Part shown: piece after piece, positions 3,650-24,860 of the stretch
Layout of the letters: each line of letters starts with the position of its first letter
Numbering within the stretch: position 1 is the first letter of the stretch
From: a virus
Reading direction: 5' to 3' (one strand)
Virus record (IMG/VR): IMGVR_UViG_3300027140_000019
Span: 1 to 25,135 of that record
Length of the DNA: 25,135 bases
Program-made: the position numbers and the translations under genes
Notes under the pieces: model-generated
Told to the model about the DNA's origin: nothing
Databases searched by the model: none
The model's input: the letters and a program-made list of their open reading frames with translations, nothing else

Positions 3650-3979
3650 TCACCTCGTGACTTCAGGTGTTACTGTAACAATTCCTTCAACTATTCTAGA
3701 AACAACATTGGCACCACTAGTTACCTCGACATCATAAACATATCTACCTGCTGTTAAATTTGCAGTCTGACCAGCAGTTAAACTCAAGGTAACGGTTCCA
3801 TTATTACCTCCAAGAGATATTGAAAAACTTTGAGAATTAGATGATGTATAGTGCTTACGTATCTCAGAGTCTCCAGTGTAACCGGTTAGATCAACAGGAT
3901 TTCCAGCATCATCAGTTAAATTAATGACTGTTGAGAATGTAGTTCCTTGATCAATTAAAATATTAGCTTTTGTTGCCAT
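3650..3979 (-). CDS. Ig-like/beta virion-associated protein (109 aa)
   Basis: MATKANILIDQGTTFSTVINLTDDAGNPVDLTGY followed in the family by a RKHYTSS motif, then GRYVYDVEV and VSRIVEGIVTVTPEVTR. This is a small beta-sandwich protein that I recall as conserved in cyanophage and related tail regions, where it also resembles the N-terminal domain of baseplate upper proteins of Siphoviridae. Its exact role is unknown; it is probably structural. It is the first gene after the late promoter. It ends in TGA within CGAGGTGACAATG, where the ribosome-binding site and start of the next gene overlap its end. Confidence 0.78.
   Translation of the reverse strand: MATKANILIDQGTTFSTVINLTDDAGNPVDLTGYTGDSEIRKHYTSSNSQSFSISLGGNNGTVTLSLTAGQTANLTAGRYVYDVEVTSGANVVSRIVEGIVTVTPEVTR
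3653..3656 (-). promoter_or_regulatory. Ribosome binding site deciding the start at 3647
   Basis: GAGG on the minus strand with five bases to ATG at 3647. It lies within the last codons of the 109-aa gene. The alternative GTG at 3653 directly touches the site and is less likely. Confidence 0.6.
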
Positions 3980-4033: not shown

Positions 4034-4041
4034 TATTTATA
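4034..4041 (-). promoter_or_regulatory. T4-type late promoter
   Basis: On the minus strand this reads TATAAATA, the exact T4 late-promoter core recognised by the phage sigma factor gp55 with the gp45 clamp. It lies in the 74-base gap after the desaturase stop, the largest non-coding gap in the window, 54 bases before the ATG at 3979. It is the only exact copy I found at a gene boundary. It probably drives the second fibre block. Confidence 0.75.
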
Positions 4042-4053
4042 TTGTTGAAAATA

Positions 4054-4854
4054 CTAATATTTAATCATCCTTATCACCCATACAGTCGGATCAATCTCCC
4101 ACCATTTTTCACCATGATTCCATCTTGAGGGATGTTTATGGTGGTTATTGTGCCACCCATTTGTACCTAGACTAATGATTGCACCAAAAATACTGTTTTT
4201 TGATTTACCGGCCGTCTTATAATTTTGGTATCCAATTTGGTGTGTAATTATATTAGATATACCGAGCGTATGAAGCACAAACCCGGCAGGGATAACATAC
4301 GCAGCCCAAAAGAGCATTGGATCTATACATGCAAGAAATATAACATATAGCATAATAATCTTGATATAGTTATTATCAAAGAATGTGATTATTTTATCAC
4401 GTCTCACATCTTTTGTATGGGCAACCCACTCTCTTGCAGAATGAATTATTGGAAAATTGTTTGTGTAAAGACGCCACCAAGAAACATACTCATACGATTG
4501 AGGGTCATACACAGTATCTTGATATCTATGATGAAGTCTATGTGTTCCTACTAAAACACTAAGATTACCAATTGAAGCTAACCCTCCAAACATAATAAGT
4601 ATAAAATTAAAAAATTTATTCGTCTGAAAACTTTTGTGGGTCAGGTACCTATGTACACCGGCATCCATACCAATATTATTAAATAAAAAAACAAAAATTA
4701 AAGTTACAATAACATATACAACAGTATTAGCTGTCAATATTTTGTACACCCCAATAAAAAACAACAGAAGAACACAAAACTTTATGAAATTTATTCTTCT
4801 GTTGCTTGCTTGTAAGGATGGATCAAGGAATAACGATAATATATGAATGTTCAT
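4054..4854 (-). CDS. Membrane fatty-acid (acyl) desaturase (266 aa)
   Basis: All three histidine boxes of the membrane di-iron desaturases are present: H68-RYLT-H73, H105-RL-HH109 and H235-NN-HH239. The spacing and flanking residues (DAGVHRYLTH, GTHRLHHRY, TNGWHNNHH) are those of delta-9-type acyl desaturases. Hydrophobic segments at about residues 25-60, 82-102 and 165-200 fit the usual membrane hairpins. The enzyme would insert a double bond into fatty acyl chains of the host membrane during infection. Desaturase genes are known as auxiliary metabolic genes in cyanophages; substrate and position of the double bond cannot be read here. It begins inside the end of the 162-aa gene without an evident ribosome-binding site and is followed by a late promoter. 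Confidence 0.92.
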   Translation of the reverse strand: MNIHILSLFLDPSLQASNRRINFIKFCVLLLFFIGVYKILTANTVVYVIVTLIFVFLFNNIGMDAGVHRYLTHKSFQTNKFFNFILIMFGGLASIGNLSVLVGTHRLHHRYQDTVYDPQSYEYVSWWRLYTNNFPIIHSAREWVAHTKDVRRDKIITFFDNNYIKIIMLYVIFLACIDPMLFWAAYVIPAGFVLHTLGISNIITHQIGYQNYKTAGKSKNSIFGAIISLGTNGWHNNHHKHPSRWNHGEKWWEIDPTVWVIRMIKY

Positions 4855-5311
4855 ATGATTTAACTATAACATTTGGCGGACATGTGATTTCTGTTTCTTC
4901 ATGGTAATCCACACCACCAACCACCAACTTCCCTTTACATAGATACATTTTGGTTTCTTTTTCAAACAATCTTGTTTCACCTGGATACATTACCAATGTA
5001 TCGTAATTTAATTTTCTACCTTCATTATTTTTTGAGTCATAACAATAAACTACCGTATTTCCGTGTGATAGCGTATTATATATTCCATGTGGCTCACTAT
5101 TAGCATATACACATTTACCAGCAACACTGTCGTTAACTTGACTCAGGTTACCGGTATTTTGCTCTACGAACTCTTGTGTAATTTTACCACTTACAAAAAA
5201 ATACTTACTTGTTGAGTTATGGTCAATTAAAACTTTACTTCTTGAATTATCCGGAAAAGTATTTCTCAAAAAATAATTACCAAAAATAGAAACTTTTTTT
5301 AATTTAATCAT
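4823..5311 (-). CDS. Unrecognised protein, possibly beta-barrel/cupin-like (162 aa)
   Basis: I do not recognise this protein. It looks beta-rich in the second half (TLVMYPGETRLFEKETKMYL, then GKLVVGGVDYHEETEITCPP, then YIIVIP), a pattern compatible with a cupin-like fold, but no complete metal-binding motif is apparent. There is no signal peptide or membrane segment. The start has no clear Shine-Dalgarno sequence; it begins 11 bases after the stop of the 107-aa gene. Its last 32 bases overlap the start of the desaturase gene in another frame, which suggests the two genes were inherited together. Confidence 0.6.
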   Translation of the reverse strand: MIKLKKVSIFGNYFLRNTFPDNSRSKVLIDHNSTSKYFFVSGKITQEFVEQNTGNLSQVNDSVAGKCVYANSEPHGIYNTLSHGNTVVYCYDSKNNEGRKLNYDTLVMYPGETRLFEKETKMYLCKGKLVVGGVDYHEETEITCPPNVIVKSYEHSYIIVIP

Positions 5312-5322
5312 AAGATATTTAA

Positions 5323-5646
5323 CTATGCATTGAATGTTTGATTGTCTGGTATAGTAGCACTTCCCTCTGCCAGTAATCTTTCAAATTCAGACATCTCATT
5401 GGCAACTGCCGATAGTTCTTGTTCTTGTTGTTGCGCAAGTGCAATCAAATCGCTGTATGGGCTAATGTCGGTTATTTCTTCGTTTCTAGTTTTTTTCCCA
5501 GTAACAACATTTTTATATTCTATCTCTCCTATATTTCCATTCCACTGAACAGCATGAATGGATGGATCTAAAGAAGAACAGTCAACAGTTGCGTTGAAGT
5601 TATCTAGATAAATCATATTATCAACTGGTACAATTGTTACTCTCAT
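5323..5646 (-). CDS. Conserved small tail-region protein (107 aa), function unknown
   Basis: The sequence MRVTIVPVDNMIYLDNF, SSLDPSIHAVQWNG and GEIEYKN...NEEITDISPYS matches a small protein I recognise from the tail-fibre neighbourhoods of many phages and prophages (pattern MRVTIVP...IDPAIHAVQW.G..GEVEY). Its function is not established; a role in tail-fibre assembly is often guessed from location. The C-terminal part (ALAQQQEQELSAVANEMSEFERLLAEG) is helical and may be a coiled coil. AAAGGAATTTCG precedes the ATG. Confidence 0.75.
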   Translation of the reverse strand: MRVTIVPVDNMIYLDNFNATVDCSSLDPSIHAVQWNGNIGEIEYKNVVTGKKTRNEEITDISPYSDLIALAQQQEQELSAVANEMSEFERLLAEGSATIPDNQTFNA

Positions 5647-5656
5647 CGAAATTCCT

Positions 5657-6262
5657 TTAATTTAAATCTATATCGTACGATACTGGTACAAAGTGAAAAA
5701 ATACAAGGTTACAAAATTTACCTTTAATTTTCTCTCTGTAGTGTGGGCTATCTGTTCCCGAGTAACAAACAGCATCATTTGGTTCTAAAATATAATCTTG
5801 ATCTTGTATGTTAATTGGCCAAACTTGATCTTGATCTATACAAAAATCAATAGTATATTTACATTGAGGCCTATCAGTATGAAATGGACATATCCCTTTT
5901 TCATTATACATACTCAAGAAACTATAAGAAGGCTTTACTTCTTCACCAAAGATATTACAAGCATCTGCTGTAAGTTGTGGATGAATAGTTCTCATCATAA
6001 ACTCATTATGGTAAAATGTACGATGAAAATTATCTGTATCCACACTTCTCATCGAAGTATTTAGGTCATTATATATGTGATGTTTAATTCTTTGATGATC
6101 TTCTTTTTTGAAGAAGTTTTTTACCACAACTGGAGTAAACACGTTTTTGTTAAAGTTCAATATATCATTGTTTTCATTAACAAATCCATCTTTTGTTCTT
6201 CTAATAAAGCAACTAGGGTTAAGGAATTTGATATCGCCTTCTTTAAGATCAAATAAACTCAT
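5657..6262 (-). CDS. Second, divergent 2OG-Fe(II) oxygenase-like protein (201 aa)
   Basis: Contains CPFHTDRPQ (His128-x-Asp130) and DSPHYREKIKGKF (His174), the expected iron ligands of a 2OG-Fe(II) oxygenase, separated by strands WPINI and YILEPNDAVCYSG. The 2-oxoglutarate-binding Arg normally found about ten residues after the distal His is not at the usual place: Lys180/Lys182 stand there, with Arg176 only two residues after the His. Either Lys substitutes for Arg or the cosubstrate is bound differently. It shares little sequence with the neighbouring 192-aa oxygenase beyond the fold. The N-terminus (TPVVVKNFFKKEDHQRI) fits the start of such domains. GAG lies upstream of the ATG. The substrate is unknown. 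Confidence 0.72.
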   Translation of the reverse strand: MSLFDLKEGDIKFLNPSCFIRRTKDGFVNENNDILNFNKNVFTPVVVKNFFKKEDHQRIKHHIYNDLNTSMRSVDTDNFHRTFYHNEFMMRTIHPQLTADACNIFGEEVKPSYSFLSMYNEKGICPFHTDRPQCKYTIDFCIDQDQVWPINIQDQDYILEPNDAVCYSGTDSPHYREKIKGKFCNLVFFHFVPVSYDIDLN

Positions 6263-6271
6263 AGATATATC

Positions 6272-6850
6272 TCAATTAAACCATGAAACTATTGAATACC
6301 TAGTACCAGACATTACTGGTAATATTTGATGAGGATATATAAAAGTAGATGGAAATACAATAGCAGATCCTTTTTTGGGTTTCAATATATACTCACCATC
6401 AAAGAAAGCCCACTCTCCACCTTCATAATTATCATTCAATAGTAGAGAACAAGATACCATTCTGGAAAGATTACCAACATGATCTGTGTGTTGCACATAT
6501 CTTTGTCCTACTTCATACCTGAGAAGCTGGTATCCGTCATCTTTAAATATCTTACACTCTGGAAATTTATTGGCGTACCTTTTTATTATATTACCAACAC
6601 ATGCAAATACCCTGTTATCAAGTTCTCGTCTTAGTAAGCTGTCGACAATAACTGACTCATGGGATAAAGATATTTCTTGACAACTTCTAATGTTTCGATT
6701 TACAACTGTCGAACCAGAATCATATCCAACAGTAGTATTACTCCACAAATTGCAATCTTTGTATTCTTCTATAATATCATCACACAGTGAGATTGGGATC
6801 ACATCTTCTAATACAACAATATAATCTTTAATATTATCAGGATATTTCAT
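6272..6850 (-). CDS. 2OG-Fe(II) oxygenase, prolyl-4-hydroxylase-like (192 aa)
   Basis: The protein has the complete facial triad and substrate arginine of the 2-oxoglutarate/Fe(II) dioxygenase fold: His121-Thr-Asp123 in VQHTDH, distal His174 in IYPHQ, and Arg184 in SGTRYSIVSWF. The sequence between (MVSCSLLLND, GGEWAFFDG, ILKPKKGSAIVFPS) matches the jelly-roll strands of the P4H-like family. Family members hydroxylate proteins or small molecules using 2-oxoglutarate and oxygen. The substrate here is unknown. The location, within tail genes, makes a structural protein possible but this is inference. The length (192 aa) is that of the bare catalytic domain. It starts at an ATGA overlap with the four-Cys gene. 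Confidence 0.88.
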   Translation of the reverse strand: MKYPDNIKDYIVVLEDVIPISLCDDIIEEYKDCNLWSNTTVGYDSGSTVVNRNIRSCQEISLSHESVIVDSLLRRELDNRVFACVGNIIKRYANKFPECKIFKDDGYQLLRYEVGQRYVQHTDHVGNLSRMVSCSLLLNDNYEGGEWAFFDGEYILKPKKGSAIVFPSTFIYPHQILPVMSGTRYSIVSWFN

Positions 6851-7185
6851 TGTCTATTTCCTTCAACATCATTAATTAACTGATCCACTACAACGTGTGT
6901 ATTCCTCAAATAGTCTTTTACAACAGTTTGTTTTAAGACATTGATATTGGACTCATTAGCTTTTACCATTTCATTTCTAAATGATTCAACGGCCGCGCCT
7001 GTTTGTCGTTGTTGCTGACTGTTTTCAATCATTAACGTTGGTAGCCATGCAATTGCACACTCAAAGGAATCTATCTCTTTTCCTGTATTTGGATCAGATC
7101 CTCTGATTTGGATAAACCAAGAACATTCTAAACCAATACATTTCTTTTTCAAAAGAGGACAAAAGTCCCCGCGTTCAAACTTCAT
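6847..7185 (-). CDS. Small four-cysteine protein of the tail region (112 aa)
   Basis: The N-terminal half carries FCPLLKKKCIGLECSWFIQI and later FECAIAWLP: four cysteines in a pattern (C-x6-C-x4-C, then a distant C) that could bind zinc or an iron-sulfur cluster. The C-terminal half (IENSQQQRQTGAAVESFRNE...) looks helical. Similar small Cys-containing proteins are, from memory, frequent in tail gene clusters of phages, with no known function. I chose the ATG at 7185 because GGAG lies seven bases upstream; an in-frame TTG at 7197 would give 116 aa but sits before that ribosome-binding site. The stop overlaps the next start as ATGA, pointing to coupled translation with the first oxygenase. Confidence 0.75.
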   Translation of the reverse strand: MKFERGDFCPLLKKKCIGLECSWFIQIRGSDPNTGKEIDSFECAIAWLPTLMIENSQQQRQTGAAVESFRNEMVKANESNINVLKQTVVKDYLRNTHVVVDQLINDVEGNRQ

Positions 7186-7191
7186 AATAAA

Positions 7192-7195
7192 CTCC
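7192..7195 (-). promoter_or_regulatory. Ribosome binding site deciding the start at 7185
   Basis: GGAG on the minus strand, seven bases before ATG at 7185. It lies inside the longer reading frame that would start with TTG at 7197, so the ATG start is favoured. Confidence 0.65.
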
Positions 7196-7209
7196 AAATG
7201 ATAAAATAA

Positions 7210-7704
7210 TTAAACAGCAGGATATGCATCCTTTGTTGCAATGATAACATCTACATACTGAACAGCAAGGTCAATAGCAGTACCTGAAAAAGTTCCAGTG
7301 TGATTGTGAGCCCCACCACCACCGGTAGGACCAGATGACTGTGGTGTTGGGCCAGAGGCGCCGCTAGCGGATCCCGAGGTAGCTTTTCCGGGACCAAGTA
7401 ACGTACCCAGCGTGTGGGTGTGCGCCGGTATCTGTGGTGTGGATAGTGTTGTATTATCAACAGTAACCGAGCCGGCTACCGACTTACTAGCAAATGCTGT
7501 TGTAAACGCCACCGTTCCACCAGGAGTAACCGTTCCTGTAACCACACGCAAAGCTTTATTATTGTGTGTTGATACATCCTTTGTCCATCCTGTCGGAGCT
7601 GCGGTTTGCACAAACAGCATAACAGTACCAGCCGGGATCGGATTTGTTGTTAAAACTGTTGTATCATTAAATGTAATACCACCAGAGCTTACGGTTGTTC
7701 CCAT
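7210..7704 (-). CDS. Phage tail-collar-like tip/adhesin protein (164 aa)
   Basis: The first 40 residues carry ITFNDTTVLTT and PAGTVMLFVQTAAPTGWTK, the start typical of tail-collar domains (IPAGxxxxFxxxxAPxGW). IPAHTHT at residues 93-98 and GAHNHTGTFSG at 131-141 provide two HxH motifs (H95/H97 and H133/H135), which in T4 gp12 and gp37 tips bind metal ions. Between them is a low-complexity Gly/Ser/Pro loop (about 103-130), a likely variable host-contacting surface. The end (VQYVDVIIATKDAYP) is a typical last beta strand of collar proteins. It starts directly after the chaperone-tipped fibre, with GAAGGAAAG upstream. It is likely a receptor-binding tip or short-fibre protein, but the receptor is unknown. 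Confidence 0.8.
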   Translation of the reverse strand: MGTTVSSGGITFNDTTVLTTNPIPAGTVMLFVQTAAPTGWTKDVSTHNNKALRVVTGTVTPGGTVAFTTAFASKSVAGSVTVDNTTLSTPQIPAHTHTLGTLLGPGKATSGSASGASGPTPQSSGPTGGGGAHNHTGTFSGTAIDLAVQYVDVIIATKDAYPAV

Positions 7705-7998
7705 TTACTTTCCTTCAATTATACTATTGTTTATTTTGCTAGACAACGCGTCTATCTGAATTTGTTGTTCTTTTATTGCTTCAATTAGTAGACCAACAAT
7801 GTGACCATATGAAACAGATTTCCATCCTTCACTATCTGTGACCACTACTTCCGGAATTACTTCTTCGGTTTCTTGCGCAATAACACCGATGTATTTACCT
7901 TTTGTTTGCTTATGGGTATACGATACACCTCTTAATCTATTTACTTTATCTAAAGCATTCGGAATTGTAACAATATCATCTTTTAATCTTTCATCAGA
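7705..7998 (-). other. Peptidase S74 intramolecular chaperone domain
   Basis: The domain begins at Ser875 in the motif S-D-E-R-L-K, with Lys880 five residues later, the Ser/Lys pair described for endosialidase-type chaperones. Autocleavage is expected just before Ser875 and would release a 97-residue chaperone with a C-terminal helical end (LLIEAIKEQQIQIDALSSKI). All the characteristic parts (IGVIAQE, PEVV, VSYGHIVGLLIEAIKE) are intact, so it looks functional. Confidence 0.88.
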
Positions 7999-10620
7999 TG
8001 AGCTGACATGAGATGTTGATGTCAAAGCACCTGTAGATGGGTTATACGTAAGTTTTGTTGTACTGACATTCAAACCAGTAGACTGGCCACTAGATGAGCT
8101 TGTAAAGGTTACATATCTTACAGCCGCAGTAGCAACATCATCGGTTATAGTAACACCAGCATCTGCCCAGTATGCATTTGTAGAAGTGCCACCAGAAGTC
8201 AACACGGCGCCAGCTGTGCCTTGCGAGGCATTGGCGGATAGGAAATTTAAAGCAACATTACTTGCATTCAACGTCCATCTCTTTGTACCTGCCCCAAGTT
8301 CACTACCAACTGTATTAGATAACGGATAAGAACCAGTATTATTTGCAGTAAAGTTAGTTGTTGTAAAACTAGCTGCATTAATGGTACCAGTATGATATAC
8401 CCCAGATGTGTTTGCATCAAACTGTGTACCCAAATCTATACTTGTTGGTGTTATAGCAACATTGACTGATGTGTTACCAACAGAAATTGAAGTGGCATTG
8501 GCAAACAAACCATTCGATGCAGCTCCGATGGTTCCTGAACCAAACCCAGTGCTTGCATTAACTTGGCCGGTTATTGTTGTGCCGGCTGTGCCAGTTATCA
8601 AGCCAGAGAAGTTACCAGTGTTGGCTGTTAAATTAAATCTGTTTGTTGCACTTCCAAGTACAATTCCTTCTGTGTTAGATAATGGGATTAGTCCTGTATT
8701 ATTTGCTTTTAAGTTGGTGGTTGTAAAACTTGCAGCGTTAATTGTACCAGTATGATATGCACCAGATGCATTTGCAGTAAATGCATTTGCAGTTAATGAT
8801 GTTATAACATTCAGCGTTGTTGTTACATTTGCAGATCCAGTTACTTTAAATGTCGAATCTGTTTGCTCTGCAGAACTACCAACATGCACTCTACCTGTGT
8901 TTGCAGCACTGAACGCGTATGTTGTTGTACCGTCATTATTTTGAAAATAAGCACGTAATATAGGAGTAGAAGCAGTATTGCCCCCAACAATATCAAAGCT
9001 GAATGTGTTATTTGCTAGCCCGGTAATAGATGAAGCAAGATTATTACCATATCCAAGAACAATCTGACCACCCTCACCGGTTGCATTGCCGCCAGATACA
9101 ATTAGATGAGACGGTACAATAGCGCCGCTTGTGTTTGCAATAAACGATGTGCCAACAGTCAACAATGCCGAGTTGACACTGGTTGACATATTAGCAACTG
9201 TACCGGTTACTGTTCCACTGAAACTACCAGTGTTGGCTGTTAAATTAAATCTGTTTGTTGCACTTCCAAGTACAATTCCTTCTGTGTTAGATAATGGGAT
9301 TAGTCCTGTATTATTTGCTTTTAAGTTGGTAGTTGTAAAACTTGCAGCGTTAATTGTACCGGTATGATAAGCACCAGTTGTATTAGCTATGAATGAAGTA
9401 CCAACTGACAAGCTAACAGTAGCATTAGCATATCCAGTAATATTAGTGTTACCTTGTGTCCATGAGTCTGATGACTCGTTCCATAAGAAGCTGACGTTTG
9501 CAGCACTTCCTCTATTAACCTCTAACCCAGCATTTTCTGTTGGAGCTACTAGCGCATCAAGATCTGCATTAAGAGTAACAATATTATCACCAACATTCAA
9601 TGTAGTTGTGTTAATATAAGTTGTTGTACCAGATACTGTAAGATTTCCAGATATAGTAACATCAGCAAGATTGGATTGACCAGTAATATTGGCGCCAGCT
9701 GATCCTGTAATTAAGCCAGATGCATTTATAGTATTTGCATTAACTATCCATCGCTGAGTAGAGGATCCAAGAGCAGCTCCAACTGTATTTGATCCTGGGT
9801 ATGCTCCAGATGTATTTGCAGTGAAGCTAGTACCTACAGTCAATAGTGCGGAGTTAACACTAACAGATACATTGGCTGCACCAGTAACTTCGAGTGCAAC
9901 ACCAGGAGTAGTGTTAGCGATTCCGACTCGGTTATTTGCTGCATCAACAAAAAGAGTACCGCTATCGAAGTTAACATTACCAGCTATAGTTTGAAGAGTG
10001 CCACTCAATGTAGCATTACCGGTCAGTGTTGAGTTACCCGATACAGTTAGCTGTCCACTAAAATTACCAGTATTTCCATTAACTACCCAACGCTGTGTAG
10101 AAGATCCAAGAGCTGTACCAACAGTATTGCTTGAAGGATAAACACCAGAATTGTTGGCAGTCACAATACCAGTAACTGTTGAGTTACTTAATGTGACTGA
10201 TGCAGAATTAATTGTACCAGTGTGGTATGCACCAGTAGTATTTGCAATAAATGATGTTCCGACAGATAGTAGAGCACTATTAACACTGACAATAGCATTT
10301 GCATATCCAGTAATTACAACGTTATTGCTGGCATTAATCGTTTTTGTAACAGTTAGATCATCTTGTAGAGTGGCTGAACCTACAACAGTTAATGTGTTAC
10401 TGAAATTACCTGAGTTTGCAAGTACAGTCCAACGATTAGTAGTATTACCTAACTGAAGTCCGTTAGTAACTGGAATCAAGTCGCCATTCGTGGTAATAGA
10501 GCTGAGGATTGTCCCAGTGAAAAATACATTTCCAGTAACTCTAAAGTCACCAGTGACGTTACTAGTACCAAAAGAATCAAATCCATAATCAATCTTTAAT
10601 TTACTATTTGCTGTTGCCAT
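7705..10620 (-). CDS. Tail fibre with C-terminal S74 intramolecular chaperone (971 aa)
   Basis: Residues 1-870 are beta repeats. Modules such as VGTSFIANTTGAYHTGTINAA, NLKANNTGLIPLSNTEG and SATNRFNLTANTG recur, and one DNA module is present twice almost unchanged (8613-8765 and 9225-9377). Around residues 320-390 is a different piece (TYINTTTLNVGDNIVTLNAD, then ENAGLEVNRGS, FLWNES) familiar from marine phage fibres. The last 97 residues are a Peptidase S74 chaperone domain with SDERLKDDI, YIGVIAQETEEVIPEVV and SVSYGHIVGLLIEAIKEQQ. Known S74 domains help trimerise the fibre and then cut themselves off. The gene ends TAA immediately before the ATG of the collar protein, suggesting the two products work together at the fibre tip. 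AAGGAA lies upstream of the start. Confidence 0.88.
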   Translation of the reverse strand: MATANSKLKIDYGFDSFGTSNVTGDFRVTGNVFFTGTILSSITTNGDLIPVTNGLQLGNTTNRWTVLANSGNFSNTLTVVGSATLQDDLTVTKTINASNNVVITGYANAIVSVNSALLSVGTSFIANTTGAYHTGTINSASVTLSNSTVTGIVTANNSGVYPSSNTVGTALGSSTQRWVVNGNTGNFSGQLTVSGNSTLTGNATLSGTLQTIAGNVNFDSGTLFVDAANNRVGIANTTPGVALEVTGAANVSVSVNSALLTVGTSFTANTSGAYPGSNTVGAALGSSTQRWIVNANTINASGLITGSAGANITGQSNLADVTISGNLTVSGTTTYINTTTLNVGDNIVTLNADLDALVAPTENAGLEVNRGSAANVSFLWNESSDSWTQGNTNITGYANATVSLSVGTSFIANTTGAYHTGTINAASFTTTNLKANNTGLIPLSNTEGIVLGSATNRFNLTANTGSFSGTVTGTVANMSTSVNSALLTVGTSFIANTSGAIVPSHLIVSGGNATGEGGQIVLGYGNNLASSITGLANNTFSFDIVGGNTASTPILRAYFQNNDGTTTYAFSAANTGRVHVGSSAEQTDSTFKVTGSANVTTTLNVITSLTANAFTANASGAYHTGTINAASFTTTNLKANNTGLIPLSNTEGIVLGSATNRFNLTANTGNFSGLITGTAGTTITGQVNASTGFGSGTIGAASNGLFANATSISVGNTSVNVAITPTSIDLGTQFDANTSGVYHTGTINAASFTTTNFTANNTGSYPLSNTVGSELGAGTKRWTLNASNVALNFLSANASQGTAGAVLTSGGTSTNAYWADAGVTITDDVATAAVRYVTFTSSSSGQSTGLNVSTTKLTYNPSTGALTSTSHVSSSDERLKDDIVTIPNALDKVNRLRGVSYTHKQTKGKYIGVIAQETEEVIPEVVVTDSEGWKSVSYGHIVGLLIEAIKEQQIQIDALSSKINNSIIEGK
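8613..8765 (-). repeat. Fibre module copy A (153 bp)
   Basis: Aligned by eye with 9225-9377, this stretch differs at only 3 of 153 positions and has no length difference. It encodes LKANNTGLIPLSNTEG and SATNRFNLTANTG of the 971-aa fibre (about residues 618-669). Confidence 0.93.
9225..9377 (-). repeat. Fibre module copy B (153 bp)
   Basis: Partner of 8613-8765 in the same gene (about residues 414-465 of the fibre). The three differences are single-base substitutions near the low-coordinate-to-high-coordinate end of the copies (about 9331-9370). Confidence 0.93.
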
Positions 10621-12457: not shown

Positions 12458-15400
12458 TTAAATAGACACTGCAAGTGCCCTCACATCTTTCATTATCGGT
12501 GGATTCTGAGTTGTACTTGATAATAAGACTACTTTGATTGCAAACACCTTATAACTTGAGTGACGTCCATTACTTGCATCAAAATATGTAACAATATTTG
12601 ACTCTCTATTATATTTAAATGCAGCTTTTTTCTGCGTAACTTTTTCAATTGAGCAAGCACCACTGAAAGAAGTATTTGACTTCAATGTTAAGTTAGTGGC
12701 GTTTGTAACAGCATCCACAACACCGATATCATAACTTGTCTCTGTATCACTTTGAACAATTTTAATGATATCATTAGCTACCAAATCTGTATTAAACGCA
12801 CTTCCAGAACCTGTTAATGTGGTAGTAGTTGCAGATGTTATAATACCAGCCAAAGCGGTTGATGGAGGAGTTCTAGGGAAGCTATATTCAAACTCAATAT
12901 AATCTTTATCATTCAAAGAATCACTGAATAGGTTTGAGTTGTTTGAGGCACTCATTAAGGTCCAGTCCTTATCTTTAAATACATCAGGATCATCAGAGCT
13001 TAGAATTTTTGAATATACTTGTATTGTAGATGTTGGTGGTTTATATGCTGTCAGGAATACTTTCATATCCTCAGCATCAAGACCCTCCGCCAATACTACG
13101 TTTTTAGAAATATATCTAACAGAAGCATTCCCATATCCTGTTGTTTCATTTGTTGCACTGTTGTTAATAATATTATTAAAAGAGATAATTGATGCAGGGA
13201 ACAAATCTACAGCAGGAGATAGTTTTGTCAATGCAGTATCATTACGAGCCATAGAAACGTTGAACTTTAATGATTTGTTATTGCTATTAGCAATTTCATT
13301 ACTTCTAGATTTAACCTCGGCCTCGTATGCCATTTTATTAGTTACACCTTCAATAATATCTATACTTGAAGGGGCAGCACTTGCAGTCTGATCAACTGTC
13401 ATAGTGTAACTTGTAGATGTTGTAGGAGGTGTTATATCTAATATATGCGCCTCTGCATAATTAACTACTATATCATCAACGCTAGATATAGTACTTGTTG
13501 CACCAGAGGCTTCTCCAATAATAGACTTATTTGCTTGAAATAAGAATGTGGTATTAGCTGCATTTGATTCTTCAAGAACAACGGTTTCATCGTTACCAAC
13601 ACTCGACATTACCGCTCTTACAACTTTCTGAACTCCAACAAAAACGGTTGAGTTATCAATTGCTTTACTTGGATAATCTTTAACAGTTATTGTTGAAGAG
13701 TTAGCAGCATTGATTCTTTGAACTTGGAAAGACTTTGATGCACCTTTGTGAGTATTAGCAGCAACAGCCCCAAGTAAAGGTGCATCAATAGTTAATGTCG
13801 TATTACTTGCAATTGCAGTAACCTCGCGTATTGAGGTATCAATTTTTATATAATCACCAACAGTATATTCAGTTTCAAAAACTGTAGTTGTACCGACTAC
13901 AGTTGTGTTTGAAGCTAATACTGTAACAGTACCTGTTTTATTAGATGTCAGACTGTCACCATATACAAACAAACCATAATCGCCCACTGAGAATGTTCCT
14001 AGTAAAGATGTGCTTGTGTTTACTACCTGACTCGTGGTATTACAAGTGAACGTAGCATTGATATATGTGTTTGATTTTTGTGCAATCTCTTCCCCACCCT
14101 GGAACGATCCGTACGTATTAGATACTGATAAAAACTCATACGGTTTATTTTCAAGGACCAATGTTCCGGTATTTTTTGTAAATTTTGCACAGTATATTGT
14201 AAATTTAACATCTTCCCTCTGTACTGGGGTCCAAGCTGTATCATTAGATGATAGGAACATTACTCCTGCACCCCAATTACTTACATACACTAACGATGAG
14301 TCTGCAATATCAGGCATACCTACTTCCGCAGTCCATAATAGATAATTGGGATTGTTTTGATCAGGAATAATTACAAAACAATAGTCTTTACCTGAGCTTA
14401 GATATATTGGAGTGTCAAAGGTAACAGCTGTTACACTACTAGCAGTGTCACTAGTATTGATAGAAGAGGACTTTAAATATCTAGATCCAAGTATTGCTGT
14501 TGCAGGATATCCATTATCAGTCTCCCTTATCTGAACTGTTGCACCTAAAGTAGAGTCCTTTGATTTAAAATATAAATCAAGCTTGGTTAGATAAACACCA
14601 TGTGTACCGTCACTATTATCGATTCTGAAGGTCTGAGCAAGAGGATCGGTCCCACCTGCGCCAGCGCCTTTATTATGGACCACAAGACCGTTAGCAATGT
14701 AGGTATTATTACCATCCAATGTAAAGTTGTAAACCTGTAGGTCAGGATCATTGATGTGTTCTGATATATCCACAATTTCCAATCCGACACGATCAACAGT
14801 TTCTATTACATCTCCTACTTGTAACTTACCAATATCCCATGTAGACAACGCTTCATACTTCTTCTTTGTTGCCTCTGGATTAAATGATTTCCATGTACCA
14901 TCTTTCATGTACACAGGATGATCATTTGTCATGAATGGAACACTACCGTTCAATGAGACTAGAGTTCTATCACCTAGTAAAGGCCTTATAAAATCAATAA
15001 CAATATTAATAGAGTTATCTTTACCAATCAACTTATCGCCTATCTCAACATCTTCAATCGACTTTGTTGATCCATCAGCCAGCGTAATGGTAGTTCCTCT
15101 AATAAAACAACAACCCCGTGGCTGTGGAGCAGGAACAGTAATATTTCTTTGCTCTGTTCCAGCTCTGGTAGATATAGAAGTATTAGAAGAAGGAGTAAGC
15201 TGACCTGGAGTTTTGGTAGTAAGAGTTAGATCAGTTATATCTTTATAAAAATTAAAAGCATTGAAAACATTCTTACCAATTGAAATAGATTGATCTATAT
15301 CATCATAATTTTGAACATCAGCTACAACAATATCACGCGATCCAACAAAAAACTGATTACTATTAATGTGGATCTCGCCAACTAGTGTTCCTGCGTCATC

Positions 15401-19452: not shown

Positions 19453-21741
19453 TTAAAATTCTAGAATCAATTTAATTGTTTCTGTCTGTCCTGGTGTTTT
19501 AGTAACAGGAGTGAAGTTCTCAATATATATAACGTCTCCAGAACCGTCAACCAAATCTCCGGACGTGATTCCGGAAACAAGAAACTGAGCTCCGGAAGTG
19601 GTCCCAGTGATATAATATGGAGTAGTTGCTTCACTTTGATTAATGGTTCCTTTTTTATCTACTAGCCTAACAGTAGTATTATTAGAATAATAGAAAAATC
19701 CGTTGGCATTTTCATTTTGTACCACCAACTCATCAGCACTGAAGTTCTGTGCTGTAAGCGTTCCAGTAACTTTATATGTCTGGTCAATATATGTTGTTGG
19801 TTGGGTGACAGTATCGGATACAGCCGTATACGTACTTGAATTACCGTATAATAGACTCACTGTAGAGTTACCAGTTACAAAAAATCCATATGCATTAGTC
19901 AGCTTAACTACGGAATCATTTGCTGCATAAACAATTCCTCTTGCTGTTGTCGTCTTTGTCAAATCCACTACAGGAATGACTGTAGCAGTCTGACCAGTAA
20001 ATGAATGACCGTTTTGTGTTAGACCTTTTGTTATGTTAACATTTGCTCCATTGAGAGCAGTCGACAACTTCAATCCAGTTGAGTTAGCGGAAACAACATA
20101 ATAAGATGTGTTGTTTGATAGACCAGATATTGCTGTATTTCCTGTAGCCACAAGATATTTTACATAATCGTTATTTTGAAAAACGTTATTAGATATCGAT
20201 ATAAAATCGGTTGCATCTGTAACATCGCTATTTGCATTAAAATAAACAGGTGATGGTGGATTTACAGTTGCTGTAGGAGTGATATATCCCGCTCCATTAT
20301 TTGCTATCTTTATTACTGATATTCTACCAGAAGAATTGGCTTCTGCATTTGCTAGAGCATCAACCGTACTTGATCCAGATATGGTTACCGTTGAGTTGGA
20401 TGTATATCCAGAACCAGCACTTGTAATCACAATACTAGATATTGGTGATCCCAAAGACTGACTAACCGTCTCTCCGTCTAAAAAGGTACCTGACGATAAA
20501 CTAATATCTATTTCTACATTTGCAAACAACGGATCTTTTATAATTCCAACCACTCTAAAATCATTAGAGTCGACAACTTTACCACCAGAAAGACTACTAT
20601 CAAAAATAGTGCTAATTCCAACATAGTGTGCACCTAGTTCTGCTGCAGCATTACTACCATGACCACCTTTTGGAGACAGAATAACCTTTGCAGTTGCAGT
20701 ATTGGCTGTTATTGTACTTCCAGTATTAACGTTTATAATTCCTGTATTTCCAGTAACAACAACAGATGCATGTGTATATCCTTCTCCTCTACTTACTACT
20801 TCAATACTGTAGATGGTATTGCTTTGTGTGTTTACTATAGCACGAGCTTGTGCACCCGAACCATCTCCTGTAACAGTAACAAGCGGTGTTATTTCATATT
20901 GAGATGAAGTAGTTGGAGTAGTATCAAATGCTGAGTCTATAATAACACGCCTTGTTGTACCAGAGACAGTGTACCCTGTAACATACCTTTGTTGGCCACT
21001 ACCAGTACCATTAGTAATCTTTAAAGCTGAGTTGATGTAGAAGTTAGCATTTGATGATGCTGTAGTAGAATCAATAGCAAATATTAATGGATTACCACCA
21101 ACCCTAACTTCTTGAAAATATCCACTTGTGTATGAAGCATATCTATCTCCACCTGAAGTAACAACTATACTATCAATAGATCCATACACCGCATTACCTA
21201 CTACATTAGCATTTATAAACACTGGTATATGTGACGTAGTTGCAAATTTATTATACTGAGTGGTTGTGATTGAATACATATACTTCCATTGGTACCCATC
21301 TGTGGGTGTGAAGTAAAAGTCATCGTCAGCTGATGTGTCAGAAAGTCTTGGTCGGTATGTTGATGGAACTCCGTTATTATTGTTTAAACACTTAAACACA
21401 CTATATGAGCTTCCTTCATCAGAAAGAACATAGAAATTATTTTGGTAGTTATTAGTATCATGAACATACTGTTGGTATACTGTACCAGCTACCCAATTGT
21501 GTCTTGGTGCCATACTACAAACGTCTTCAGATGTTATTCTTTTACCGTAAATCATATTATTATATGTGTCAAACAGAGTGGTTTGCACTGTATCAACTAA
21601 AGTAGGAGGTGAGGCGTCTTCCGTATACGGTATAGGATTACCTATAAAATAATAGTAGATATTGAAATTAGGTTCAGAAAACGATTCAATAAATTGATCT
21701 ACGTTAAATAACTTAATGTTGTTTGTTATAAGTTTACTCAT
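19453..21741 (-). CDS. 8: gp8-like baseplate wedge protein, enlarged
   Basis: This 762-aa protein resembles T4 gp8 at both ends. At the N-terminus (residues 1-180) it has FNIYYYFIGNPIPY, MAPRHNW at 78-84 (compare IPRRDW in T4), and TDGYQWKYMYSI at 147-158 (compare GDGYVWEYLFEI). The last residues, GDVIYIENFTPV...QTETIKLILEF, match the T4 gp8 end, which has the form GEMIYMENRPPI...QTEEINILFTF. T4 gp8 is 334 aa, so about 430 residues are inserted between the two conserved ends. The insert is beta-rich with repeated 'GxGY' motifs (GEGYTHASVVVTG, GSGYTSNSTVTISG, GAGYITPTATV). In T4, gp8 is a wedge component of the baseplate periphery. It starts at an ATG overlapping the previous stop (ATGA). The stop lies 11 nt before the next start. 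Confidence 0.85.
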   Translation of the reverse strand: MSKLITNNIKLFNVDQFIESFSEPNFNIYYYFIGNPIPYTEDASPPTLVDTVQTTLFDTYNNMIYGKRITSEDVCSMAPRHNWVAGTVYQQYVHDTNNYQNNFYVLSDEGSSYSVFKCLNNNNGVPSTYRPRLSDTSADDDFYFTPTDGYQWKYMYSITTTQYNKFATTSHIPVFINANVVGNAVYGSIDSIVVTSGGDRYASYTSGYFQEVRVGGNPLIFAIDSTTASSNANFYINSALKITNGTGSGQQRYVTGYTVSGTTRRVIIDSAFDTTPTTSSQYEITPLVTVTGDGSGAQARAIVNTQSNTIYSIEVVSRGEGYTHASVVVTGNTGIINVNTGSTITANTATAKVILSPKGGHGSNAAAELGAHYVGISTIFDSSLSGGKVVDSNDFRVVGIIKDPLFANVEIDISLSSGTFLDGETVSQSLGSPISSIVITSAGSGYTSNSTVTISGSSTVDALANAEANSSGRISVIKIANNGAGYITPTATVNPPSPVYFNANSDVTDATDFISISNNVFQNNDYVKYLVATGNTAISGLSNNTSYYVVSANSTGLKLSTALNGANVNITKGLTQNGHSFTGQTATVIPVVDLTKTTTARGIVYAANDSVVKLTNAYGFFVTGNSTVSLLYGNSSTYTAVSDTVTQPTTYIDQTYKVTGTLTAQNFSADELVVQNENANGFFYYSNNTTVRLVDKKGTINQSEATTPYYITGTTSGAQFLVSGITSGDLVDGSGDVIYIENFTPVTKTPGQTETIKLILEF

Positions 21742-24700
21742 ATGATTATTTGTACACCGGAGGTTGTTATTGCCAGGTTAACATTTGATGTTTTAACCAC
21801 ATTTCCAAAAAGCTTTGTACCTGCAACATGCATTAACTTCTTCAAAGTTTCTCCATATACGTCTAATGGAACTGCTGCTTGAACTTGATATGAATAAGTT
21901 TGGTAAAAATCACCATCGTGTATGTATTTATCACTGTTCAAGAACCCTTTAGTGGATTTGAAGTACCCTTCTCCAACTCCTTGGTTAATTAAATTTATAT
22001 AACCACTAGCAATGTACGGACTGTCTTCCTTGCTTAAAGTAATTGGCTCGCCTTGCTCATATGCAAATCCTGAGTCAATAATAGATAGATCGGATATAGA
22101 TCCATTGACAATCCCAGCAAAGGAATTAACAACTGCGTTGTTACCCATAAGAGAAGAACCTGCAATCTGAGAAACACTTCCAACATCAGCTGTTGCTCCT
22201 GAAATACTTCCTGTTATTGGTATTCCTGCCGTGAATGATTGGTTAAATGTCTTTCTTGTTGCATTAATAAATGACGAAGATGAATTAATAACATTTCCTC
22301 TTGATATTGATATTTGTGCGTTTGCTAATGATGTATCAATGAAGAATATACGTCCTGAAGTCATACCAATAGCGACGTTAGTTGCTTTAGATATTGTATT
22401 TGTACTTGTGATTACAGCACTGTTTGTTTTTAAATTTAATGTAGTATTATTACTAATTGTGTTAATTTGAAATACTAAATTATTTCCTGAGAACTTAATA
22501 AAGTCACCAGCAGTAAATGATGATGTAAATGTCGTTCCTGTACCATTAACCTGTGGACTTGTTGCATTTGATGTTACAGTACCTGTTGCTGCAGCACTGA
22601 GGGCTGAGTTAACAAAGCTGTTACCATAGGTTGAATTAGACGTACCACTAACTACTACAAAAGCAACACTTGTATTAGAAGAAGTAACTTGTCCATATCC
22701 GTTTGCGGTAGAATTGATTACTTGAGTGATATTCTCATTTGTAGTATATGATGTGTTAGATCCACTAATAGATAAAGTGTAAGAAGGTTTAGAGAAGTTC
22801 TGTACTAGCTCTTCACCCACAGTAAAATTACCAGATTTGTTAGATATTGCAATATGCAAATCACGTCTGTTAAATTGAGATATTCCATCATCTCTAACTA
22901 GAACGAATGGAGATATATTATAGCCTGATCCAGGATTGATACCTGCAAGAGAAGAAATTGTACCTATATTATATGAATCAGTTGTAAGAACATTATTTAA
23001 TATAATGTTAATATTAGCAGTTGGCATTTTTGGAAAACCATATTGCAAAGCATTCAATGGAATAGTTTTATATTGGCCGTTGGTAACAGATATTGTGTTT
23101 GATGTTGCTAATCGGGAATTTGCTGTGAGGGTAAGAATAGTGTTATTAGATACAACGTTGACCTGATATACTGCCGTATTACCACCAAATTTTATATAAG
23201 CGCCACTGTATAGATCCGTTGTAAACGATGTACCTACTCCGTTAACTTGAGGACTTGTTGTATTGGATGTTACTGTTCCAGATAATAATAATGTAGTGAT
23301 TCCATTGTTTCCTCCAATCAAATCTGTATTTAAAAATACAGATTCTTCATCGGTCAATCCACCAACAGTGAACGTAGCACCAGAACCTGAACCAACTACA
23401 CTTACATTTGCATATACGTTTGATGTTGCTCCGTAAAAGAAGTTATAGTTATTAGATGAAAAAGAATTGGATACCTCTGTTAACCCAATTGCTTCTGCAT
23501 TTACTCCTATTACTCTACCTGTTGCTGTTCTATCTGTATAGGAAGATATAAGAGCAGCTGAACCAGATATCCTGTCTGTTAATGACCAATCTCCTGATAG
23601 TTTGATTACCAAGAAACTTCCGTTAGCCTGCGTCATCCCGTTTGCCGTGACATCTGGTCCAACAGTTGTTAATGTCAACTGAGTATTACTGGTAACTGAG
23701 TATACTTGAAACGTTGACGTACATGCTTGAAATTTGACATAATCATTATTAGCAATTTGAGACACAAACGATGTACCGACTCCTACTACAGTGTTTGAAG
23801 TAGAATTGGAAGTAACTGTACCTGTAATATTATTCTGGAATTTACCAACAATTCTACCAGTCGATAAAGATGTTGTTGCATTTGCTCCAGTTACAAAATC
23901 ACCTATTTGAAAAGATGTATTGGATGAGTAGAAAGCAATGTTTGCTAGGGGCTGGTATACGTACTCATCAATAGAAAAATCATTTATGTATACATTAGCC
24001 GATGACTTATTAGTAATGGATAACATAACTTCAGCAATCTTGGGAACTGTCACTAATCTGTATCCAGTACCACCGTCCAAAAGCGTAAATGAAACCTTAC
24101 CAGTAGAATTCACACTGCTGTTAATTCTTGCTTTACCCTGTTTACCGCGTCTTTGAGAGACAATATCAACAACATCTCCAGCACTGAATTCACGACCTCC
24201 ATCATTAATAGTTATAGTGGTAGCAGATCCAACTACTACAGGACATTCTTGAAGATCTCCATCTACAGTTATCACTTCATCATATAAAAAGTTACCTCTA
24301 ATATTGGAAAGGTAGAGTATATCAATATATCTACCAGCCAAAGTCTTTCTACTGATACCCTCAACAAAAGCAGTAGCATTTGATGTGGATCCTGTGATTT
24401 GTTTTCCTTGGAATGTAGGAGTTTTAGGCGATAGAGATATCTCAAGATATGAAGGAACAAACCATTCTCCGTCAGATGGTTTTATTACATCGCTACCTGG
24501 ATAGTATAAATTTATATCAGATAGTCCCCATACTTCTTGAAATATTAACTTAACACCTCTTTCTGTTCCTTTGGATCTATAGATATCTAGAGAGTTTTTA
24601 ACATTTGATCTAGTTTTATTATAAAATACAGGAGCGCCAGGAAGGTATTTTTCTTTAAAGTGATATAAAAACTCATCTATGGTTTTATCAATATCACGAT

Positions 24701-24860
24701 ACTCTAACAGGTTTCTTGCAAAATATATGTTATTATTTGTCTGCTGAGTCCAGTTATAATACTCTTTTACAAACTCAATAAAATTATTTCCTTGCTCATT
24801 ATAAAAATCAGGAAAATGATTCTGTACAAAAATACTAATGTTGTCTTCTATCTCTTTCAT
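21738..24860 (-). CDS. Large baseplate/virion structural protein in the gp7 position
   Basis: A 1040-aa protein between a gp6-like and a gp8-like gene, the place of the wedge protein gp7 in T4. The N-terminus has an aromatic helix-rich segment (FPDFYNEQGNNFIEFVKEYY around residues 15-35, then RSKGTERGVKLIF around 95-107). The C-terminus has a recognisable end (FYQTYSYQV, then a LMHVAGTKLFG motif around residues 1010-1020) that I know from other marine T4-like structural proteins. The middle is Ser/Thr/Asn-rich beta sequence. It includes three copies of a roughly 60-residue unit beginning GTVTSN (about residues 346-406, 527-589 and 758-827) with pattern GTxF...GDxIKF...QV..I..NT.L.L. I see no sequence resemblance to T4 gp7 itself, so gp7 is a positional guess. 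It overlaps both neighbours by ATGA. Confidence 0.7.
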   Translation of the reverse strand: MKEIEDNISIFVQNHFPDFYNEQGNNFIEFVKEYYNWTQQTNNNIYFARNLLEYRDIDKTIDEFLYHFKEKYLPGAPVFYNKTRSNVKNSLDIYRSKGTERGVKLIFQEVWGLSDINLYYPGSDVIKPSDGEWFVPSYLEISLSPKTPTFQGKQITGSTSNATAFVEGISRKTLAGRYIDILYLSNIRGNFLYDEVITVDGDLQECPVVVGSATTITINDGGREFSAGDVVDIVSQRRGKQGKARINSSVNSTGKVSFTLLDGGTGYRLVTVPKIAEVMLSITNKSSANVYINDFSIDEYVYQPLANIAFYSSNTSFQIGDFVTGANATTSLSTGRIVGKFQNNITGTVTSNSTSNTVVGVGTSFVSQIANNDYVKFQACTSTFQVYSVTSNTQLTLTTVGPDVTANGMTQANGSFLVIKLSGDWSLTDRISGSAALISSYTDRTATGRVIGVNAEAIGLTEVSNSFSSNNYNFFYGATSNVYANVSVVGSGSGATFTVGGLTDEESVFLNTDLIGGNNGITTLLLSGTVTSNTTSPQVNGVGTSFTTDLYSGAYIKFGGNTAVYQVNVVSNNTILTLTANSRLATSNTISVTNGQYKTIPLNALQYGFPKMPTANINIILNNVLTTDSYNIGTISSLAGINPGSGYNISPFVLVRDDGISQFNRRDLHIAISNKSGNFTVGEELVQNFSKPSYTLSISGSNTSYTTNENITQVINSTANGYGQVTSSNTSVAFVVVSGTSNSTYGNSFVNSALSAAATGTVTSNATSPQVNGTGTTFTSSFTAGDFIKFSGNNLVFQINTISNNTTLNLKTNSAVITSTNTISKATNVAIGMTSGRIFFIDTSLANAQISISRGNVINSSSSFINATRKTFNQSFTAGIPITGSISGATADVGSVSQIAGSSLMGNNAVVNSFAGIVNGSISDLSIIDSGFAYEQGEPITLSKEDSPYIASGYINLINQGVGEGYFKSTKGFLNSDKYIHDGDFYQTYSYQVQAAVPLDVYGETLKKLMHVAGTKLFGNVVKTSNVNLAITTSGVQIII

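What the first reader, a model, noticed from the sequence alone, without database searches (positions are those of the whole stretch)
4054..4854. Fatty-acid desaturase inside the tail-gene region
A complete three-histidine-box desaturase is placed between fibre-related genes, immediately upstream of a late promoter and overlapping a gene of unknown function. Membrane-lipid desaturation by a phage could alter host membrane fluidity. The placement in a structural block, and not among the usual early metabolic genes, would suggest late or middle expression.
Basis: partly seen in the sequence, partly recalled or inferred. Interest (0 to 1): 0.6.

Follow-up and report, generated by a model that had tools for sequence, protein, structure and literature searches.

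The report
Phage fatty-acid desaturase among tail-fibre genes
A T4-like aquatic phage carries an intact membrane-lipid desaturase gene in a swappable block of extra genes between its tail-fibre genes; this is a new example of a kind of phage gene already known, and it belongs to a virus-only branch of the enzyme family.

Summary
Confirmed: 4054-4854, on the minus strand, encodes a complete 266-aa integral-membrane desaturase. Its model matches stearoyl-CoA desaturase (Z 23.8, 2.9 A over 246 residues) and all ten SCD1-type metal-ligand positions are kept. It ends a tightly packed run of cargo genes (two 2OG-oxygenase-like genes among them) inside the VrlC-to-neck 'host recognition cluster' of a T4-superfamily phage. 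A sister phage (74-80% identical in flanking genes) lacks the whole run, so the block is exchangeable. The late promoter TATAAATA lies downstream of the desaturase and serves the next fibre gene; but two T4-like relatives (L029, pelagiphage Mosig) have TATAAATA upstream of their desaturase or its operon, which supports late expression. Phylogeny puts it with hundreds of viral desaturases, apart from all cellular ones sampled (100/100). Phage desaturases, this placement and virus-only clades are published: a new member of a known kind. Odd: it alone, among 171 relatives, has G-T-N-G instead of the near-invariant G-E-G before histidine box 3. Side lead: its nearest relatives lie on viral contigs with 7-11 desaturases, a ketoacyl synthase and a phosphopantetheinyl transferase.

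The parts
4054..4854 (-). Integral-membrane fatty-acid (acyl) desaturase, 266 aa, SCD/DesC type, virus-side clade
   Evidence: Pfam PF00487, PDB SCD1, model pLDDT 93.9, SCD1 Z 23.8, tree
4636..4653 (-). Histidine box 1 HRYLTH (H68, H73)
   Evidence: invariant in 80 viral and 90 of 91 cellular relatives, one gapped
4528..4542 (-). Histidine box 2 HRLHH (H105, H108, H109)
   Evidence: invariant
4240..4254 (-). NIITH: N201 and H205, equivalent to the SCD1 Asn and His ligands
   Evidence: H205 invariant; N201 kept here but replaced by I/T in many viral relatives
4156..4167 (-). G230-T231-N232-G233: window-only change; relatives have G-E-G or G-D-G, one residue shorter
   Evidence: no other viral contig with GTNGWHNNHH
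4138..4152 (-). Histidine box 3 HNNHH (H235, H238, H239)
   Evidence: all three histidines invariant in viral relatives
4034..4041 (-). TATAAATA, T4-type late promoter core, for the downstream fibre-assembly gene
   Evidence: only exact match in the window, in the 74-nt gap
4823..5311 (-). Cargo gene of unknown function, overlaps the desaturase start by 32 nt
   Evidence: no Pfam/PHROG match; no relative in phages or viral contigs at the sensitivity used
5323..5646 (-). Cargo gene, unknown function
5657..6262 (-). Cargo gene, 2OG-oxygenase-like (phrog_2954, annotated there 'ferrochelatase'; a desaturase-adjacent relative in L049 weakly matches 2OG-FeII_Oxy_2)
6272..6850 (-). Cargo gene, 2OG-Fe(II) oxygenase
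   Evidence: PF13640 E 1.7e-17
6847..7197 (-). Cargo gene, unknown function
7210..7704 (-). Tail-collar/tail-fibre-like protein
   Evidence: phrog_5795 tail protein
7705..10620 (-). Large tail fibre with SDERLK chaperone-like C terminus
   Evidence: sequence; homologue in sister phage L245
3650..3979 (-). Fibre-assembly gene after the cargo block
   Evidence: phrog_1084 / phrog_3304 L-shaped tail fibre assembly; 80% identical in L245
12458..19441 (-). VrlC-like baseplate/tail protein that opens the host recognition cluster
   Evidence: PF16075 DUF4815; synteny with phiM12
19453..24860 (-). Baseplate wedge gp8 and gp7 homologues

Best explanation
The gene encodes a phage-borne di-metal acyl desaturase of the SCD/DesC type. 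SHOWN: an intact ORF, predicted fold, all ligand positions, virus-side ancestry and a cargo position in the tail-fibre region. INFERRED: late in infection it is made from read-through transcripts of the tail-fibre operon, inserts into the host inner membrane, takes electrons from a host ferredoxin- or rubredoxin-type carrier, and adds a cis double bond (probably delta-9, C16-C18) to host acyl chains. That would make the membrane more fluid while virions are assembled and the cell is prepared for lysis. The gene is part of an exchangeable cargo block in the VrlC-to-neck host recognition cluster of a T4-superfamily phage.
For: Pfam and SCD1 matches. AlphaFold model mean pLDDT 93.9; SCD1 TM 0.78, Z 23.8, rmsd 2.9 over 246 residues, against Z 7.5 for alkane monooxygenase AlkB. 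H68, H73, H105, H108, H109, N201, H205, H235, H238, H239 all present. Viral-profile score 249 bits with the window left out, against 185 bits to a cellular profile; no cellular protein exceeds about 218 bits to the viral profile, also in 493 sampled genomes. Cellular sequences are one side of a branch, 100/100. gp7-gp8-VrlC-fibre order as in phiM12. Sister phage L245 lacks the block. TATAAATA upstream of the desaturase in L029 and of the hydroxylase-desaturase pair in Mosig. From memory, paper not held: Roitman et al. 2018 report delta-9 C16 activity for two cyanophage desaturase families; it is cited in PMC7300359.
Against: Substrate, position of the double bond, electron donor and timing are not shown. 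The near-invariant Glu before box 3 is replaced by Thr-Asn with one extra residue, so activity could be altered or lost. The protein sits on a very long branch (1.8-2.3 changes per column) and its nearest relative is only 40% identical. No promoter directly upstream of the gene was identified. The tested vFADs of Roitman et al. could not be compared. The gene is seen in one assembly only.
Confidence: 0.7

Rival explanations
1. A degenerating or functionally shifted desaturase: the GEG-to-GTNG change next to box 3 and the long branch mean that it no longer acts as a delta-9 desaturase, and it is either inactive or does other di-metal chemistry such as hydroxylation or acetylenation.
For: Glu/Asp at that position in all 80 viral and 91 cellular relatives; no other viral contig with the variant; very long terminal branch.
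Against: All ten ligand positions and all three boxes are intact, the ORF is full length, the model is confident through this region (block means 94-96 for residues 221-250), and N201, lost in many viral relatives, is kept.
Confidence: 0.15
2. The enzyme acts on carrier-bound acyl chains in a phage-specific pathway (an unusual polyunsaturated acyl product), not on bulk membrane lipids.
For: Its three nearest relatives (L014, L082, L015) lie on contigs with 7, 7 and 11 desaturases; L015 and L082 have a ketoacyl synthase directly after the desaturase; the three loci together also hold a phosphopantetheinyl transferase, Rieske and rubrerythrin genes.
Against: The window has one desaturase and no ketoacyl synthase, carrier protein or PPTase seen in 25 kb; many viral relatives have a single desaturase; the viral identity of these three contigs rests on IMG/VR and a head-protein family match in L015.
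Confidence: 0.1
3. A recent copy of a host desaturase, or host contamination in the contig.
For: Phages do pick up host desaturases; PMC7300359 and PMC7678222 describe such cases.
Against: Embedded in a T4-type structural block with an overlapping gene; no cellular relative above about 35% identity; it falls on the viral side of the tree with full support; low GC like the neighbouring cargo genes.
Confidence: 0.03

Closest known systems
Phage-encoded fatty-acid desaturases (vFAD): cyanophage vFADs of Roitman et al. 2018 (from memory, not held); Arctic vFADs (PMC7300359)
   Same: SCD-like three-box desaturase on a phage genome; virus-only clades; proposed role in membrane fluidity
   Different: Only 40% identical to its nearest viral relative; GTNG before box 3; not compared directly with the tested cyanophage proteins
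Putative FA_desaturase of Pelagibacter phage Mosig EXVC030M (MT647606, Mosig_00080)
   Same: T4-superfamily phage, desaturase in an extra-gene block close to tail-fibre genes and next to an Asp/Arg-hydroxylase gene
   Different: 23% identical, 216 aa, shorter; its operon starts with exact late-promoter cores
Host recognition cluster (HRC) of pelagimyophages and cyanomyophages (PMC7029224); PMP-D phages with fabF, stearoyl-CoA desaturase and a 2OG-Fe dioxygenase
   Same: Interval after VrlC with fibres and cargo; desaturase and 2OG-type enzyme in the same genome
   Different: This phage's wedge proteins are closest to rhizobial phiM12-type phages; the far end of the cluster (gp13/gp14) is outside the window
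Mammalian SCD1 (4ymk, 4zyo) and cyanobacterial DesC-type desaturases
   Same: Fold, ligand positions; GWHNNHH ... WWEID C-terminal motif shared with DesC-type proteins
   Different: 18-20% identical to SCD1, shorter, in the virus-side clade

Membership tests
SCD/DesC-type acyl desaturase (PF00487) | Pfam profile above its gathering score | tested here: met
   57.3 bits against 29.7
SCD/DesC-type acyl desaturase (PF00487) | Three histidine boxes plus the Asn/His ligand pair | tested here: met
   all ten positions present
SCD/DesC-type acyl desaturase (PF00487) | SCD1 fold | tested here: met
   TM 0.78; Z 23.8, rmsd 2.9, 246 residues
SCD/DesC-type acyl desaturase (PF00487) | Typical, not strictly defining: conserved G-E-G before box 3 | tested here: not met
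   G-T-N-G; Glu or Asp in all 171 relatives. A strong family trait, but not shown to be required for activity
SCD/DesC-type acyl desaturase (PF00487) | Delta-9 desaturation of acyl chains | not testable with these tools
   needs expression and fatty-acid analysis
Virus-encoded desaturases (vFAD) | Lies on a phage genome among phage genes | tested here: met
   gp7, gp8, VrlC, fibres
Virus-encoded desaturases (vFAD) | Groups with viral desaturases and apart from cellular ones | tested here: met
   cellular rows one side of a branch 100/100. Inside the viral clade or sister to it is unresolved: AU p 0.476 for the window outside the viral rows
Virus-encoded desaturases (vFAD) | Membership in either cyanophage family shown to be delta-9 (Roitman 2018) | not tested
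   paper and sequences not held
Host recognition cluster of T4-type aquatic phages | Variable block after VrlC holding tail fibres and cargo | tested here: met
Host recognition cluster of T4-type aquatic phages | Closed at the other end by neck gene gp13/gp14 | not testable with these tools
   outside the 25-kb record
T4-type late promoter | TATAAATA core placed before a gene | tested here: met
   single exact site, in the 74-nt gap before 3650-3979; not before the desaturase itself

The most novel reading that the evidence does not exclude
The window enzyme belongs to a virus-specific acyl-modification lineage whose core is a multi-desaturase pathway with ketoacyl synthase and phosphopantetheinyl transferase, and it makes or finishes an unusual (poly)unsaturated acyl group for the phage, using an active site altered next to box 3, instead of simply raising membrane fluidity.
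Probability: 0.08. Interest if true: 0.65.

Novelty: new member of a known kind. Interest (0 to 1): 0.33.

Why it matters
It adds a desaturase to the cargo of T4-type tail-fibre clusters, with a sister phage that shows the block can be absent, and with promoter evidence in relatives that such desaturases are late genes. The virus-only clade suggests that phages have kept and diversified their own desaturases for a long time, so their role is probably specific to infection and not just borrowed host metabolism. The GTNG variant is a natural test of a near-invariant residue beside the metal site.

Tried and rejected
Single-sequence scan of viral contigs found no close relative; relatives appeared only with an alignment. 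Acinetobacter 'phage' MD-2021a as a second isolate with a desaturase: rejected, the surrounding genes are chromosomal. Sigma-70-type promoters near the gene: 27 found against 21.9 +/- 4.1 expected, so not informative. Sheath (PF04984) and terminase (PF03237, phrog_38) markers mostly missed the carrier contigs, so most are not individually proven as phages; gp23 or VrlC shows T4-type identity for L073, L038, L057, L029 and Mosig. psbA-type Photo_RC found in none of 53 carrier records, so no sign that these are cyanophages. A general enrichment of TATAAATA upstream of viral desaturases: rejected, 1 of 44 loci against 36 of 729 other ORFs; only T4-type L029 has it. Pseudomonadota and Cyanobacteriota genomes searched for a closer cellular source: none; other phyla were reached only by the capped scan. 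The unknown neighbour 4823-5311 has no relative found.

Full report
The observation. The ORF at 4054-4854 is real, complete and on the minus strand, 266 aa with an ATG start. Pfam FA_desaturase matches at 57.3 bits against a cut-off of 29.7, and the best solved-structure sequences are mouse and human stearoyl-CoA desaturase. The three boxes are HRYLTH, HRLHH and HNNHH. The gene overlaps its upstream neighbour 4823-5311 by 32 nt. TATAAATA, the T4 late-promoter core, occurs once in the window, at 4034-4041 on the minus strand, inside the 74-nt gap between the desaturase stop and the next gene 3650-3979.

The phage. Proteins 21738-24860 and 19453-21741 are gp7- and gp8-type baseplate wedge proteins, most like those of Sinorhizobium phage phiM12 relatives. 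In phiM12 the order is gp7, gp8, VrlC-like protein, small protein, tail fibre, fibre assembly, gp13 neck; the window has the same order up to the fibres. Pelagimyophage work named the VrlC-to-gp14 interval the host recognition cluster, a hypervariable block with fibres and extra genes, also present in cyanomyophages; two freshwater members carry fabF, a stearoyl-CoA desaturase and a 2OG-Fe dioxygenase (PMC7029224). The placement of the desaturase is therefore expected for this kind of phage.

The cargo block. Genes from 7704 down to 4054 are spaced by -32 to +12 nt: collar-like, unknown, 2OG-Fe(II) oxygenase, 2OG-like, unknown, unknown, desaturase. A sister phage, L245 (gp8 74%, fibre assembly 80%, next fibre 76% identical), has a shorter fibre with collagen-like repeats that overlaps the start of the fibre-assembly gene directly; collar, both oxygenases, the unknown genes and the desaturase are absent. 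A near-identical contig, L243 (99.98% over 18.8 kb), confirms the block down to window position 5315, where that contig ends just before the unknown gene upstream of the desaturase. The desaturase itself is thus seen in one assembly only.

The enzyme. An AlphaFold model from an alignment of 38 viral sequences has mean pLDDT 93.9. It matches SCD1 with TM 0.78 and Z 23.8, rmsd 2.9 over 246 residues; the next relevant fold, alkane monooxygenase AlkB, has Z 7.5. All positions that align with SCD1 metal ligands are present (the ligand list itself is from general knowledge of the SCD1 structures). One feature is unique: where 78 viral and 91 cellular relatives have Glu (two viral ones Asp) in G-E-G before box 3, the window has G-T-N-G, one residue longer. 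No viral contig encodes the same string. Its effect is unknown.

Relatives. Only three isolate records match; two of them are Acinetobacter records that are chromosomal contamination as far as read, and the third is pelagiphage Mosig. With an alignment, over 570 stretches in IMG/VR encode relatives, the best 40% identical; cellular ones reach about 35%. In a 124-row tree and a careful 50-row tree all cellular proteins lie on one side of a branch with full support, and the window lies on the viral side. Whether it is inside the viral clade or its sister is unresolved (AU p 0.476); it is a long branch. Profile scores agree: 249 bits to a viral profile built without it, 185 to a cellular one, and no gene in 493 Pseudomonadota and Cyanobacteriota genomes exceeds 218 bits to the viral profile. 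Other phyla were sampled less.

Timing. In T4-type L029, TATAAATA lies 17 nt before the first ATG of the desaturase ORF, and 30 nt before a second ATG that follows AAGGA. In Mosig two TATAAATA copies precede an Asp/Arg-hydroxylase gene that is followed 8 nt later by the desaturase. These are consensus matches, not mapped promoters; no enrichment exists in the other, mostly non-T4 loci (1 of 44 against 36 of 729 control ORFs). For the window, read-through from the fibre operon is the inference.

Function. The most likely role is desaturation of host membrane acyl chains late in infection. Phage desaturases with this proposed role are published for Arctic viruses, including virus-only clades and five copies in one virus (PMC7300359), for a Nitrospirota virus of Lake Baikal (PMC7678222) and for cyanophages (Roitman 2018, known to me from memory and cited in PMC7300359; not held). 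Neighbours of the viral relatives are often radical SAM proteins (19 of 150 scanned neighbours), Asp/Arg hydroxylases (12) and tail-fibre domains such as Mtd_N (6), so the link to host-recognition genes and to iron enzymes recurs.

A side lead. The three nearest relatives lie on contigs with 7, 7 and 11 desaturases, with ketoacyl synthase directly after the desaturase in two, and with phosphopantetheinyl transferase, Rieske and rubrerythrin genes in the set. That suggests a carrier-bound acyl pathway in some viruses. The window shows none of these parts, so this remains the less likely reading for it.

Verdict. New member of a known kind, with one unusual change next to the active site.

Noticed in passing
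window 12458-19441 (-), protein residues about 1443-1590: An intein-like Hint domain of about 150 aa (starts GCCFIRGTT, ends VVHN followed by Lys) sits inside the VrlC-like baseplate protein and is absent from five homologues (L245-L248, phiM12). The missing Cys/Ser/Thr after HN suggests it may cleave, or be unable to splice.
   Followed up: partly
L015:3800-19142, L082:7996-16758, L014:2367-13174, L076:9932-19599, L087:6891-18845: Arrays of 5-11 desaturase genes on single viral contigs. L015 and L082 have a ketoacyl synthase right after the desaturase; L014, L015 and L082 together also hold a 4'-phosphopantetheinyl transferase, Rieske and rubrerythrin genes. Possible viral polyunsaturated acyl pathway.
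   Followed up: partly
window 5657-6850 (-): Two adjacent 2OG-oxygenase-like genes upstream of the desaturase; the sister phage L245 lacks them although its fibre carries collagen-like GPTGPTG repeats.
   Followed up: no
window 5315: The near-identical contig L243 (99.98% identity over 18.8 kb) ends exactly at the gap before gene 4823-5311, perhaps a strain-variation breakpoint inside the cargo block.
   Followed up: no
viral relatives at the position of window N201 (for example L029, L031, L043): Many viral desaturases have Ile or Thr where SCD-type enzymes have the Asn ligand, while keeping all histidines.
   Followed up: no
L003 (CAKLQH020000002.1): The record named Acinetobacter phage MD-2021a is a stretch of bacterial chromosome here (trpB, btuB, baeRS, aidB), so its desaturase is not phage-encoded.
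   Followed up: yes
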